Assembly (NCBI GenBank): GCA_020073525.1
Contig: JAIQFA010000035.1
Span: 1 to 47,032 of the forward strand
DNA length: 47,032 nucleotides
Reading direction: 5' to 3'
Origin: Terriglobia bacterium
Lineage (GTDB): Bacteria; Acidobacteriota; Terriglobia; Terriglobales; Acidobacteriaceae
A model generated the notes under the pieces. It was not told where the DNA came from. It was given only the letters and a program-made list of their open reading frames with translations, and ran no database searches. Shown piece after piece: positions 15,014 through 27,438 of this stretch (the stretch's first letter is position 1; every line of letters starts with the position of its first letter). Position numbers and translations under genes: made by a program.

Positions 15014-15042
15014 TTGACCTCGGGAGTGGTTCAACCTACTAT
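15014..15042 (+). promoter_or_regulatory. Promoter of the polycysteine leader and sulfur operon
   Basis: TTGACC (15014-15019) and TACTAT (15037-15042) are separated by exactly 17 bases. They match the sigma-70 hexamers at five and four of six positions. The expected start point, about 7-8 bases past the -10 box, is A15050, the first base of an ATG. This predicts a leaderless message. Confidence 0.65.
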
Positions 15043-15049
15043 GCAGACT

Positions 15050-15139
15050 ATGTCGATGCAAAGTCTCTGCGCGATGTGCATGTGCGCTTGTTGTTGTTGT
15101 GCATGTGTGTGCCCTGGCGCGGGGAGGTTGCCGACTTAA
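15050..15139 (+). CDS. Polycysteine leader peptide (attenuator uORF)
   Basis: 29 codons then TAA. Nine are Cys (positions 7, 10, 12, 14-17, 19, 21), including four consecutive TGT codons at 15089-15100. It reads MSMQSLCAMCMC then ACCCCACVC then PGAGRLPT. It stands directly after a promoter whose predicted start is the A of this ATG, and no ribosome site sits close to it, so translation may be leaderless. In-frame ATGs at 15041 and 15056 are alternatives. It precedes a sulfite reductase/APS reductase operon and is followed by an intrinsic terminator, so it most likely senses charged tRNA-Cys by ribosome pausing. Polycysteine upstream ORFs that control sulfur genes are known from mycobacteria; I am not aware of one in this group. 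Confidence 0.8.
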   Translation: MSMQSLCAMCMCACCCCACVCPGAGRLPT

Positions 15140-15202
15140 AAGTTTTCTTTAGAAACCGGCACTTATAACCCACCGCCAGATAAACCTGGCGGTGGTTTTT
15201 TT
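15114..15202 (+). terminator. Attenuator: antiterminator strand and intrinsic terminator
   Basis: The terminator is a perfect 10-bp stem CCACCGCCAG/CTGGCGGTGG (15170-15179 and 15186-15195) with a 6-base loop and seven T (15196-15202). CTGGCG at 15114-15119, in the Pro-Gly-Ala codons just after the last Cys codon of the leader, repeats the 3' arm. It can pair with CGCCAG (15174-15179), and further G-C pairs are possible past a bulge (15121-15124 with 15170-15173). That pairing would break the terminator. It lies 21 bases before the reductase start codon, so a terminator for the distant galT is unlikely to be its only role. Confidence 0.82.
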
Positions 15203-15223
15203 GTTTTAGGGGACAAACAGGCG

Positions 15224-16954
15224 ATGGCGAACACAGCAACAGAAACCAAGGCACAGAGAGTCGAACGTCTCAAACGCGCCAAGAATCCATGGGACGGGCT
15301 GGAAGAAATCCGGCGCTTCGCGCGCGAAGGATTCGAGTCCATTCCGCCAGAGTGGATCGGGACCTACTTTCGTTGGTGGGGCGTTTACACGCAGGGGGAT
15401 GGAGCTGGCGTCACTGGCGGCAAAGGCGGGGAAGGCAAGGCTCTCCAACGCTTCATGGTGAGAATCCGCATTCCCAACGGTCTGTTGCGTGCCGAGCAGC
15501 TGCGAACCATTGCCGATCTTACCCGTCGCCATGCCAACGGAATTGCCGATATCACCGTGCGCCAGAATATTCAGTTGCACTGGGTCACGATCGAGGCGCT
15601 TCCGGAACTGCTCGAAGCGCTCGCACACGTGGGCTTGAATACGACCAGCGCCTGCGGCGATGTTACGCGAAATGTTACCGGCTGCCCGGTCGCGGGAGTC
15701 GATGCCGACGAGATTTGCGATGCTTCGTCTCTGGTGCTCGAAGCCTCGCGAATGCTCGCGGGCAATGCCGATTTCTACAACCTTCCCCGTAAATTCAAGA
15801 TCTCGATCACCGGTTGCCGCGTGTGGTGCCCGTACCCGGAGATCAACGATGTGGGGTTGACCGCGACTACGCGTGTGCTACGCGGGACACCTGAAGTCGG
15901 ATTCTCACTGCGCGTTGCGGGAGGTCTTTCTGCCGAACCTTACCTGGGAGCGCGATTGAATGCGTTTGTCCGCTGGCACCAAGTGCTGCCTGCCATTCGA
16001 GGGATTGCCGAACTGTTTCGCGACTCGGAGGTGTTACGCGAACATCGCGAGCGGGCGCGGCTGAAGTTTCTCTTCCTGCGGCATGGCTGGACGGCGGAGA
16101 GTTTTATTGACGAACTGCAGCGGCGGGTTGGATTTGCATTTGACCCTGCTGTCGAGGAACAGCCGCCAGCCGACGTTTATCGCGACCACGTGGGAATTCA
16201 TCCGCAAAAGCAGCCGGGCTATTGCTACGTAGGGGCCGCGGTTCTCCGCGGACGAATTACCGCCGAGCAAATGCACGCTGCCGCCGATTTGGCCGAGCGT
16301 TTTGCGTCCGGCGAACTGCGCACAACCAACATGCAGAACCTGCTGGTCGTCAATGTTCCCCGTCTGAATGCTGAAGACCTTGCCAAGGGATTGGACGGGA
16401 TTGGATTGAAAGTTGGCGGCTCGCCCTTCTTTCGCGGCACGGTCGCGTGCAGCGGCACGGAATTTTGCAAGCTGGCGATCACCGAGACGAAGAGCTTTTC
16501 CCGCTGGCTGGTGGAAGAACTGGAAGAGCGCCTGCCTGGCTTCGATCAGCACCTGAAGTTGCACGTGACTGGATGCCCGAATAGTTGCGGACAGCATTGG
16601 ATTGCTGACATTGGCATTGATGGCAAGAAGATGAAAATCGACGGCCGCCTCGTCGATGCCTACTACTTCTGCCTGGGCGGAGCGCTCGGTTTGCATCAGG
16701 CGACGGCACGGCCCGTGGGATATCGCTGTCCTGCAACCGAGGTTCCGGAGGCGATTGAAAGATTGCTCCGGCAATATCTCGCAGCTCGCGCACCGGGCGA
16801 GAACCTGCGCCAGTTCTTTTCCCGGCATACCGACACGGAGTTGCGGGAATTTCTGGCGGGCGCACCGGTGGATGCGGTTGCTCGTAATTTCCCGCCCGTG
16901 GGAGTGACGGAAACCGGAAGCTTAGCGCAAATAGCTGGAGGAGATGGTGACTAA
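15224..16954 (+). CDS. Ferredoxin-dependent sulfite (or nitrite) reductase
   Basis: 576 residues with the duplicated ferredoxin-like half-domains and siroheme/[4Fe-4S] domains of the NirA/SirA family. The cluster cysteines are visible as CSGTEFC (Cys409, Cys415) and CPNSC (Cys451, Cys455). It reduces sulfite to sulfide, or nitrite to ammonia, by six electrons in the cytoplasm. The operon partners (siroheme synthesis and APS reductase) and the polycysteine leader argue for sulfite. The ATG follows the attenuator terminator by 21 bases. Its end overlaps the next gene by 11 bases. Motifs alone do not settle the substrate. Confidence 0.93.
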   Translation: MANTATETKAQRVERLKRAKNPWDGLEEIRRFAREGFESIPPEWIGTYFRWWGVYTQGDGAGVTGGKGGEGKALQRFMVRIRIPNGLLRAEQLRTIADLTRRHANGIADITVRQNIQLHWVTIEALPELLEALAHVGLNTTSACGDVTRNVTGCPVAGVDADEICDASSLVLEASRMLAGNADFYNLPRKFKISITGCRVWCPYPEINDVGLTATTRVLRGTPEVGFSLRVAGGLSAEPYLGARLNAFVRWHQVLPAIRGIAELFRDSEVLREHRERARLKFLFLRHGWTAESFIDELQRRVGFAFDPAVEEQPPADVYRDHVGIHPQKQPGYCYVGAAVLRGRITAEQMHAAADLAERFASGELRTTNMQNLLVVNVPRLNAEDLAKGLDGIGLKVGGSPFFRGTVACSGTEFCKLAITETKSFSRWLVEELEERLPGFDQHLKLHVTGCPNSCGQHWIADIGIDGKKMKIDGRLVDAYYFCLGGALGLHQATARPVGYRCPATEVPEAIERLLRQYLAARAPGENLRQFFSRHTDTELREFLAGAPVDAVARNFPPVGVTETGSLAQIAGGDGD

Positions 16955-22668: not shown

Positions 22669-23676
22669 TCAGCCGTTTGCCAATACGTGCTGCAGTCCCT
22701 TGACAGCTTTCATGTACTGGGCGCGTTCAAAGGCTCCGGGATCGGGGCAACGGAGTTGGCTCATGCTGCCTTGCATCTGTTTCACAGATTCGTATTCGTG
22801 ATCTTCCATCCACTGCCGAACGCCTTCCTCTACATGACGAAGGTGCCCGATGCCATGGCGCAATAGCGCAGAGCACAGCATGGTCACGTCGGCGCCAACC
22901 ATGAGCAACTTGATTACGTCCTCGGGGGCATACACGCCGCTGGTAGCCGCCAGGTTGGCCCGGACGTGGCCGTAGAGAATGCCGATCCAAGTCAGGGGGA
23001 GTCGTAGCTCCTGCGGGCTGCTGAGCAGCACGCTCGGTTTGATTTCCAATTCTTCCAGGTCGATATCGGGTTGGTAAAAGCGGTTGAATAGCACCAGGCC
23101 GTCTGTGCCAAGTTGGTCGAGCCTCTTCGCCATATTCGCGAAATTGCTGAAAAACGGGCTGAGCTTGGCCGCTACCGGAATATGGACCGAAATCTTCACT
23201 TCCCGGAGAATGTCGGCATAGATCCTCTCTATCTCGGAGCCAAGGATCTCAGTGTTGGTCGGCAAGAAGTAGATGTTGCACTCGATGGCATCGGCTCCAG
23301 CCTGCTCGACCTGCTTGGCGTACCTGGCCCACCCGCCCAGCGTTGTTCCGTTAAGGCTGGCGATAATCGGAACGTCGACCGCGTCTTTGGCTTTGCGAAT
23401 GTGATTGAGATAGCCCTCGGGTCCAACGTGGAACTCGCTGGATTGGGGAAAGTAAGAAATCGATTCGGGAGAACTTTCCGTGCCGACGTTGAGATAGTGC
23501 TCAAACTCGACGCCTTCCTGACGCAGCTGCTCCTCGAAGAGGGAATAGAGCACGACAGCCGAAGCGCCGGCATCTTCGAGGGCACGGATTCCGCCGATCT
23601 CCTGGGAGAGCGGGGATGCGGAGGCAACCAACGGCGTGCGCAACTGCAGGCCAAGATACTTCGTGTTTAGATCCAT
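22669..23676 (-). CDS. Dihydroorotate dehydrogenase-like flavoprotein next to PFOR
   Basis: 335 residues, TIM-barrel flavoprotein of the PyrD family (MDLNTKYLGLQLRTPLVASA; IIASLNGTTLGGWARYAKQV; GADAIECNIYF; the late LLMVGADVTMLCSALLRHG). It lies 40 bases downstream of the PFOR gene on the same strand, a pairing seen in many anaerobes. The window has no pyrimidine genes around it, so a role other than pyrimidine synthesis is likely, perhaps in electron transfer with PFOR. The substrate is unknown. The start ATG 23676 is followed by the conserved N-terminus. Confidence 0.87.
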   Translation of the reverse strand: MDLNTKYLGLQLRTPLVASASPLSQEIGGIRALEDAGASAVVLYSLFEEQLRQEGVEFEHYLNVGTESSPESISYFPQSSEFHVGPEGYLNHIRKAKDAVDVPIIASLNGTTLGGWARYAKQVEQAGADAIECNIYFLPTNTEILGSEIERIYADILREVKISVHIPVAAKLSPFFSNFANMAKRLDQLGTDGLVLFNRFYQPDIDLEELEIKPSVLLSSPQELRLPLTWIGILYGHVRANLAATSGVYAPEDVIKLLMVGADVTMLCSALLRHGIGHLRHVEEGVRQWMEDHEYESVKQMQGSMSQLRCPDPGAFERAQYMKAVKGLQHVLANG

Positions 23677-23716: not shown

Positions 23717-27331
<3,615 letters not shown>

Positions 27332-27438
27332 GACATCCCCTTCTGGACTTCTCTGGAGCCCCTGCCGTTCTGAGGGAACGGACACATAAAGCATGCCGGA
27401 TCAAGGTGATATTGTCGGGAACGTGGCGCACACGGGCG

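What the first reader, a model, noticed from the sequence alone, without database searches (positions are those of the whole stretch)
15050..15139. Polycysteine leader peptide ahead of the sulfite/APS reductase operon
A 29-codon frame holds nine Cys codons, four of them consecutive TGT, just upstream of genes that make sulfide for cysteine. Cys is normally one of the rarest residues, so this density is very unlikely by chance. Such a peptide lets ribosome pausing report charged tRNA-Cys. Similar polycysteine upstream ORFs that control sulfur genes are known in mycobacteria; one in an acidobacterial-type genome would be an independent case.
Basis: partly seen in the sequence, partly recalled or inferred. 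Interest (0 to 1): 0.93.

Follow-up and report, generated by a model that had tools for sequence, protein, structure and literature searches.

The report
Cysteine-codon attenuator before sulfur genes
An acidobacterium carries, just before its sulfite-reductase genes, a tiny reading frame packed with cysteine codons and followed by a transcription-stop hairpin, a pair kept in most of the close relatives examined and predicted to let the cell turn those sulfur genes up when cysteine runs short.

Summary
A Cys-rich short frame plus terminator precedes sirA in 73 of 85 distinct acidobacteriotal loci, against 0 of 85 reverse strands, 0 of 425 shuffles and 0 of 11 loci of other phyla. It persists, with diverged sequence, in 23 of 40 more distant relatives (0 of 40 reverse strands). 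A promoter-like site puts the start codon 6-11 nt after the -10 box in 58 of 66 leaders, so the peptide is likely translated leaderless. Related attenuators carry Cys codons before other sulfur genes, Thr codons before aspartokinase and Ile/Val codons before ilvB. Best reading: a ribosome-mediated transcription attenuator sensing charged tRNA-Cys. Not tested at the bench. Known relatives: mycobacterial polycysteine uORFs (no terminator) and the Rhodobacterales cysS motif. New variant of a known kind.

The parts
15014..15042 (+). Promoter-like site: TTGACC (15014-15019), 17-nt spacer, TACTAT (15037-15042)
   Evidence: 9 of 12 matches; 1 found, 0.3 expected in shuffles; sites scoring at least 8 of 12 precede 66 of 72 non-redundant leaders
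15050..15139 (+). Leader peptide frame, 29 codons, 9 Cys; start codon 7 nt after the -10 box, so likely leaderless
   Evidence: 0 of 20,000 shuffles
15089..15100 (+). Run of four TGT (Cys) codons: predicted stalling site
   Evidence: in 63 leaders the longest Cys run holds 216 TGT and 23 TGC, against 72 and 608 in the sir genes of 57 of those loci
15083..15103 (+). Candidate small hairpin with most of the TGT run in its loop (TGCGC 15083-15087 with GTGCA 15099-15103)
   Evidence: 83.2% of cells paired over 63 leaders, 3 of 500 shuffles reach it; covariation reached by 16 of 500; modest support only
15114..15133 (+). Region 2: 5' side of the antiterminator (CTGGCG 15114-15119, GGG 15122-15124, TGCCG 15129-15133), overlapping the end of the leader frame
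15157..15161 (+). 3' arm of the inner antiterminator stem (CGGCA)
15169..15179 (+). Region 3: CCCACCGCCAG, shared by antiterminator and terminator
15170..15202 (+). Intrinsic-terminator-like hairpin: 10-bp stem (15170-15195; region 4 is 15186-15195) and seven T
   Evidence: over 63 leaders 97.4% of cells paired, covariation score reached by 0 of 500 shuffles
15224..16954 (+). sirA: NIR_SIR-family sulfite/nitrite reductase
   Evidence: Pfam PF01077, PF03460
16944..17558 (+). cysG N-terminal-type precorrin-2 dehydrogenase
   Evidence: TIGR01470
17555..18418 (+). cobA / cysG C-terminal-type uroporphyrinogen-III methyltransferase
   Evidence: TIGR01469
18415..19131 (+). cysH: APS/PAPS reductase
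   Evidence: TIGR00434

Best explanation
Window 15014-15202 holds a promoter-like site, a 29-codon frame with nine Cys codons and an intrinsic-terminator-like hairpin ahead of a sirA-cysG-cobA-cysH gene run, and it is predicted to work as a ribosome-mediated transcription attenuator that likely senses charged tRNA-Cys. Inferred course: RNA polymerase starts at or just before the ATG and a ribosome begins on the near-leaderless message. If Cys-tRNA is plentiful, the ribosome runs through the UGU codons to the stop codon (15137-15139), covers the 5' side of the antiterminator (CUGGCG...GGG...UGCCG, 15114-15133), region 3 (15169-15179) pairs with region 4 (15186-15195), and transcription ends at the U run before sirA. 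If Cys-tRNA is short, the ribosome stalls at the UGU run (15089-15100), leaves 15114 onwards free, region 2 pairs with region 3 before region 4 is made, the terminator cannot form, and the sulfite/APS reduction operon is transcribed. Shown by sequence and comparison: the frame, its recurrence, the terminator-like hairpin, the alternative pairing, the promoter spacing, the genes. Inferred: start site, translation, stalling, termination, response to cysteine.
For: Frame and chance. Terminator. Recurrence: Cys frame plus terminator in 73 of 85 distinct acidobacteriotal sir loci; controls 0 of 85, 0 of 425, 0 of 11; 23 of 40 more distant loci at a laxer hairpin score, controls 0 of 40 and 0 of 400 (16 of 40 at the stricter score). 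Geometry: 63 of 72 non-redundant leaders passed a start-position and terminator filter (9 skipped); they have 25-34 codons, 4-10 Cys, and the terminator 15-38 nt after the stop. Antiterminator: 90.1% of cells paired, reached by 0 of 500 shuffles and against 26-54% when slid; with the ribosome placed on the last Cys of the run, region 3 pairs with region 2 in the lowest-energy fold of 63 of 63 leaders (60 of 63 with it on the first Cys), 9 nt at the median against a mean of 5.5 nt in shuffles. Sensor matches pathway: among 45 sense-strand hits in 12 hand-picked genomes, leaders before sulfur genes have 4 or more Cys in 25 of 29 cases, those before aspartokinase or ilvB in 0 of 10, where Thr or Ile/Val codons mostly stand instead. 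A model of the antiterminator/terminator half alone (R2) found 16 sir leaders in 41 genomes, all 16 with at least 4 Cys in 12 codons upstream, but 11 of the 16 are in its training set; the 5 new ones have 5-8 Cys. The hairpin does not belong to the gal genes: galT is found in 2 of the 80 genome-contig loci, 52 of which hold over 3 kb upstream.
Against: No expression, start-site or ribosome data. Once region 4 is included, the lowest-energy fold of the window RNA downstream of a stalled ribosome holds the terminator, not the antiterminator (15104-15203), so the switch would have to be kinetic. The stalled-state fold energies are only moderately below shuffles (median z -2.73, 42 of 63 under -2, on the last Cys; -1.35, 21 of 63, on the first). 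The classical 1:2 pause hairpin seen in the fold of this one sequence is not supported across relatives (69.0% paired, same as shuffles). The antiterminator is conserved more than it covaries (covariation score reached by 157 of 500 shuffles, 61 of 500). 12 of 85 close loci and 17 of 40 distant loci miss the joint criterion; R2 has no match in 23 of 41 relatives; in the window's own genome model R1 finds a Cys leader only before sirA. Lack of a Shine-Dalgarno motif before the leader is not informative, since sirA starts lack the same motifs (4 of 63 against 2 of 63).
Confidence: 0.88

Rival explanations
1. Translational attenuation as in mycobacteria: the Cys frame would control initiation at sirA rather than termination.
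For: Cysteine genes of M. smegmatis are cited as regulated by translation attenuation through poly-Cys leaderless short ORFs (PMC13236596, passages); the promoter spacing suggests a leaderless frame here too.
Against: An intrinsic-terminator-like hairpin lies between the frame and sirA and covaries; the stop codon is 84 nt before the sirA ATG, with no overlap.
Confidence: 0.07
2. The Cys-rich nascent peptide senses a metal or redox state (a thiol sensor), not charged tRNA.
For: Nine thiols in 29 residues; redox status was also considered for the mycobacterial frames (PMC4633059, passage).
Against: Number and arrangement of Cys vary (4-10 Cys over 63 leaders); the related attenuators swap Cys for Thr or Ile/Val in step with the downstream pathway; the run strongly prefers one synonymous codon, which a peptide sensor would not need.
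Confidence: 0.04
3. The hairpin is only the terminator of the upstream gal genes and the Cys frame is incidental.
For: It lies downstream of galT on the same strand.
Against: Frame, promoter-like site and hairpin travel with sirA, not with galT: galT is in 2 of 80 loci, the pair in 73 of 85.
Confidence: 0.01

Closest known systems
Ribosome-mediated transcription attenuators (trp, his, thr, leu, ilv leaders of Proteobacteria; general features partly recalled)
   Same: Short frame rich in codons of the end product; terminator before the first gene; alternative antiterminator made from the end of the leader frame
   Different: Cysteine as the sensed amino acid, a sulfite/APS reductase operon, Acidobacteriota, likely leaderless frame; no conserved 1:2 hairpin found
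Polycysteine uORFs of Mycobacterium (Seliverstov 2005 PMC1262725 and Shell 2015 PMC4633059, passages; Canestrari 2020 not held, known from citations)
   Same: Cys-run short frame before cys/sulfur genes, leaderless
   Different: There no conserved terminator hairpin, and the regulation is cited as translational; here a conserved terminator-like hairpin and antiterminator
uORFC-8-2 motif, cysS of Rhodobacterales (PMC8632094, section read)
   Same: Cys codons in a uORF and an intrinsic terminator; proposed sensing of charged tRNA-Cys
   Different: Two tandem Cys codons, UGC dominant, only before cysS; here UGU-rich runs before sulfur assimilation genes in another phylum
Leaderless leader peptides of Streptomyces lividans, e.g. 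IlvL (PMC8079986, passages)
   Same: Leaderless leader peptide with termination that seems Rho-independent before an amino acid operon
   Different: Branched-chain amino acids, Actinobacteria; no cysteine leader in the passages seen

Membership tests
Ribosome-mediated transcription attenuator | Short leader frame rich in codons for the amino acid made by the operon | tested here: met
Ribosome-mediated transcription attenuator | Intrinsic terminator between leader frame and first structural gene | tested here: met
   By sequence; termination itself not assayed
Ribosome-mediated transcription attenuator | Alternative antiterminator pairing that excludes the terminator | tested here: met
   By conserved computed pairing only; covariation weak, and the full-length fold favours the terminator
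Ribosome-mediated transcription attenuator | 1:2 pause/anti-antiterminator hairpin | tested here: inconclusive
   Present in the fold of the window sequence, not supported across relatives; a small hairpin around the Cys run has modest support
Ribosome-mediated transcription attenuator | Response to the charging of the cognate tRNA in vivo | not testable with these tools
   Needs expression assays
Mycobacterial polycysteine uORF (translational attenuator) | Leaderless short frame with a Cys run | tested here: inconclusive
   Cys run met; leaderless start inferred from promoter spacing, start site not mapped
Mycobacterial polycysteine uORF (translational attenuator) | No conserved terminator hairpin before the operon | tested here: not met
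   Conserved terminator-like hairpin present; so not filed there
uORFC-8-2 cysS motif | Upstream of cysS, two tandem Cys codons at positions 14-15 | tested here: not met
   Before sirA with a run of four; definition read in PMC8632094
Known riboswitch or other Rfam leader family | Match above the family's gathering score | tested here: not met
   0 matches in the window, Rfam 15

The most novel reading that the evidence does not exclude
Acidobacteriota run amino-acid supply through one family of leaderless attenuators: an interchangeable sensor peptide (Cys, Thr, Ile/Val, perhaps Trp and Met codons) set on a shared CUGGCG / CGCCAG / CUGGCG switch. The cysteine version has spread over sulfite and APS reduction, sulfate activation, siroheme synthesis, sulfur transfer and sulfonate uptake, making a cysteine attenuation regulon, and its sensor runs are mostly UGU, the rare Cys codon there.
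Probability: 0.55. Interest if true: 0.75.

Novelty: new variant of a known kind. Interest (0 to 1): 0.64.

Why it matters
It would be a regulatory system for sulfur assimilation in a phylum for which predicted attenuators had almost no assigned function (PMC2965389, passage). It pairs cysteine sensing with classical terminator/antiterminator switching, which the mycobacterial case lacks, and the Cys/Thr/Ile-Val swap within related leaders gives an internal control for what the sensor codons do. The strong UGU preference makes the old question of synonymous codon choice in attenuators (PMC1183508, passages) testable for an amino acid that, as I recall, bacteria usually decode with a single tRNA.

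Tried and rejected
Classical 1:2 hairpin: drawn from the fold of the window sequence, not supported in 63 relatives. Shine-Dalgarno comparison of leader and sirA starts: uninformative. Other four-Cys-codon places of the genome: 32 looked at of 48 in all, none with a following terminator. First orientation error: loci from the genome search on the minus strand are not turned, so the first scan read 14 loci on the wrong side; corrected. A first recurrence count (77 of 92) still held duplicates and was replaced. Weak ilvB leader of the own genome at G000:C1 (L197): no clear sensor codons, not counted as support. Plasmid search with the leader DNA: no match. Structure prediction and protein-homologue searches were not used; they bear little on a cis-acting leader. 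Ten paper searches were made; no title or abstract start in their listings (at most 20 rows each) describes a cysteine attenuator in Acidobacteriota. Canestrari 2020 is not held, and Lopatovskaya 2010, a comparative attenuation study seen only in a reference list, was not looked up, so an earlier mention is possible.

Full report
What is there. Window 15050-15139 reads as a 29-codon frame with nine Cys codons, four of them consecutive TGT. It sits between galT (ends 14902) and a gene run that Pfam and NCBIfam identify as a NIR_SIR reductase, cysG N-terminal type, cobA/cysG C-terminal type and cysH. Upstream is TTGACC-17-TACTAT (15014-15042) and downstream, before the reductase, a 10-bp GC-rich hairpin followed by seven T (15170-15202). 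The leader RNA folds more stably than its shuffles (z -3.49). No Rfam family matches. The closest relatives found by sequence are MAGs named Acidobacteriaceae, Sulfotelmatobacter and Terriglobia, so I place the window in Acidobacteriota by inference.

Chance. In 20,000 dinucleotide shuffles of the intergenic region no frame reached the observed 8 Cys in 12 codons; the best was 6.

Recurrence. From the class search and the genome-contig scan I had 110 sir loci; 105 have at least 200 nt upstream and 96 of these are distinct. A short frame with at least 4 Cys in 12 codons, followed at 5-65 nt by a terminator-like hairpin, stands before 73 of 85 acidobacteriotal loci; on the opposite strand in 0 of 85; in 0 of 425 shuffles; and in 0 of 11 Rokubacteria and Methylomirabilota loci. 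For 40 more distant relatives (sir identity roughly 48-66%, taken), 38 have at least 3 and 26 at least 4 Cys in 12 codons (opposite strand 4 and 0 of 40; shuffles 39 and 7 of 400), and 23 meet the joint criterion with a laxer hairpin score, opposite strand 0 of 40, shuffles 0 of 400; at the stricter score it is 16 of 40. The leader sequences differ widely while the composition and place stay.

Geometry. In 72 non-redundant leaders, 66 have a -35/-10 pair scoring at least 8 of 12, and in 58 of those 66 the first in-frame start codon is 6-11 nt after the -10 box. If transcription starts about 7 nt after the -10 box, as usual, the message is leaderless or nearly so. A published survey predicts about 13% leaderless genes in three Acidobacteria genomes (PMC3160421, table passage). 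In the 63 leaders that passed a start-position and terminator filter (9 did not) the peptide has 25-34 codons and 4-10 Cys, and the terminator begins 15-38 nt after the stop.

Switch. The terminator stem is 97.4% paired over these 63 leaders with a covariation score that no shuffle reached. The end of the leader frame (CTGGCG, GGG, TGCCG) can pair with CGGCA and with CCCACCGCCAG, the left arm of the terminator: 90.1% of cells paired, against 26-54% for slid versions (92.0% over 58 leaders). These arms are so conserved that covariation is weak, which I count against certainty. Folding what a ribosome on the last Cys codon of the run would leave free, up to region 3, pairs region 3 with region 2 in 63 of 63 leaders (60 of 63 for the first Cys codon), 9 nt at the median against a mean of 5.5 (6.0) nt when region 2 is shuffled; the energies lie at a median z of -2.73 (-1.35). 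With region 4 added, the lowest-energy fold of the window RNA is the terminator form, so the model needs the antiterminator to form first. The classical 1:2 hairpin is not supported; a small hairpin around the TGT run has modest support.

Sensor-free model. A covariance model built only from the second half (R2, no Cys run in it) was run on 41 genomes. It gave 19 matches in 18 genomes and none in 23. Sixteen lie before sirA and all 16 have 4-8 Cys in 12 codons upstream; 11 of these are sequences of the training alignment, 5 are new and have 5-8 Cys. The other three are ilvB in the own genome and two in another family, with 2, 3 and 5 Cys.

A wider set. The full model R1 matches 172 of 399 genomes of the class at E 0.01 and 44 of 396 of a phylum-wide draw at E 0.001; these counts include leaders for other amino acids and partial, terminator-only matches. 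In 12 hand-picked genomes with many hits there are 57 matches; 12 lie on the opposite strand of another hit and were left out. For the other 45 I named the downstream gene by BLAST to a seed set and picked the likely leader by script (counts; seeds identified). Before sulfur genes (cysD 7, second NIR_SIR reductase 6, sirA 5, sulfurtransferase 4, cysG 3, and tauE, ssuA, rhodanese, a Cys/Met PLP enzyme 1 each) 25 of 29 leaders have 4 or more Cys. The exceptions are L155 (3), L196 (2, with four Met), L180 (masked bases) and L199 (another frame there has 8 Cys in 12 codons). Before aspartokinase (8) and ilvB (2) it is 0 of 10; six of the eight aspartokinase leaders have 6-9 Thr, L213 has 4, and for L210 the script's choice has none. 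The own-genome ilvB leader at C110 reads MQILIQPVRITIVVVGVVVNHEALAGGCAN; the second own-genome ilvB hit shows no such run. Six hits stand before other genes (peroxiredoxin with 7 Cys, a URO-D protein with 5, two outer-membrane beta-barrel-like proteins with 3 and 4, two unnamed). R1 contains Cys codons, so it favours Cys leaders; the Thr and Ile/Val cases are found through the shared second half. In the phylum draw six of seven f31 leaders have runs of six to eight Cys; six of the seven downstream proteins, the seed L226 included, are of the cysH type. A cysteine synthase leader (L228) and a Trp-Trp leader before trpE (L235) also appear.

Codon choice. In the longest Cys run of each of 63 leaders, TGT is used 216 times and TGC 23 times; the sir genes of 57 of those loci use TGT 72 and TGC 608 times, and nine genes of the window 12 and 46. 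Models of attenuation stress the choice among synonymous regulatory codons (PMC1183508, passages). With one tRNA for both Cys codons (recalled), slower wobble reading of UGU or avoidance of RNA structure are possible reasons; neither is tested.

What it works like and what it is. It works like the trp/his type attenuators and meets their defining sequence features except the 1:2 hairpin. It resembles the mycobacterial polycysteine uORFs in content and likely leaderless start, but those have no conserved terminator hairpins (PMC1262725, passages) and are cited as translational (PMC13236596, passages), so I do not file it there. The nearest proposed cysteine case with a terminator that I saw is the uORFC-8-2 motif before cysS in Rhodobacterales (PMC8632094, section read). 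Leaderless leader peptides with terminators are known for other amino acids in Streptomyces (PMC8079986, passages). My ten paper searches listed no such cysteine element for Acidobacteriota; two relevant papers were not read. I therefore call it a new variant of a known kind.

Noticed in passing
G000:C110 13156-13311 (-), locus L198 3720-3812 (-): In the same genome a similar attenuator stands before ilvB (acetolactate synthase) with a leader MQILIQPVRITIVVVGVVVNHEALAGGCAN rich in Ile and Val.
   Followed up: partly
L183, L193, L195, L202, L205, L209, L213: Leaders with 4-9 Thr codons and the same switch before aspartokinase genes, reminiscent of the E. coli thr leader (recalled).
   Followed up: partly
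L226, L229, L230, L232, L233, L234, L236: In another family of the phylum (f31) Cys-rich leaders, six of seven with runs of six to eight Cys codons, before cysH-type genes (seed L226; L229, L230, L232, L234, L236 match it, L233 was read in a wrong frame).
   Followed up: partly
L235: Leader ending ...SSCWWRVRAEVGAGR with a Trp pair before trpE.
   Followed up: no
L225, L239, L196: Leaders with several Met codons before Cys/Met PLP enzymes (MetY-like), possible methionine attenuators.
   Followed up: no
L154, L156, L157: Cys leaders of the same type before outer-membrane beta-barrel proteins with a carboxypeptidase-regulatory-like domain (L154; L156 and L157 similar to it); perhaps uptake of a sulfur compound.
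   Followed up: no
window 23717-27394 (-): Pyruvate:ferredoxin oxidoreductase, next to a dihydroorotate-dehydrogenase-like gene at 22669-23676.
   Followed up: no
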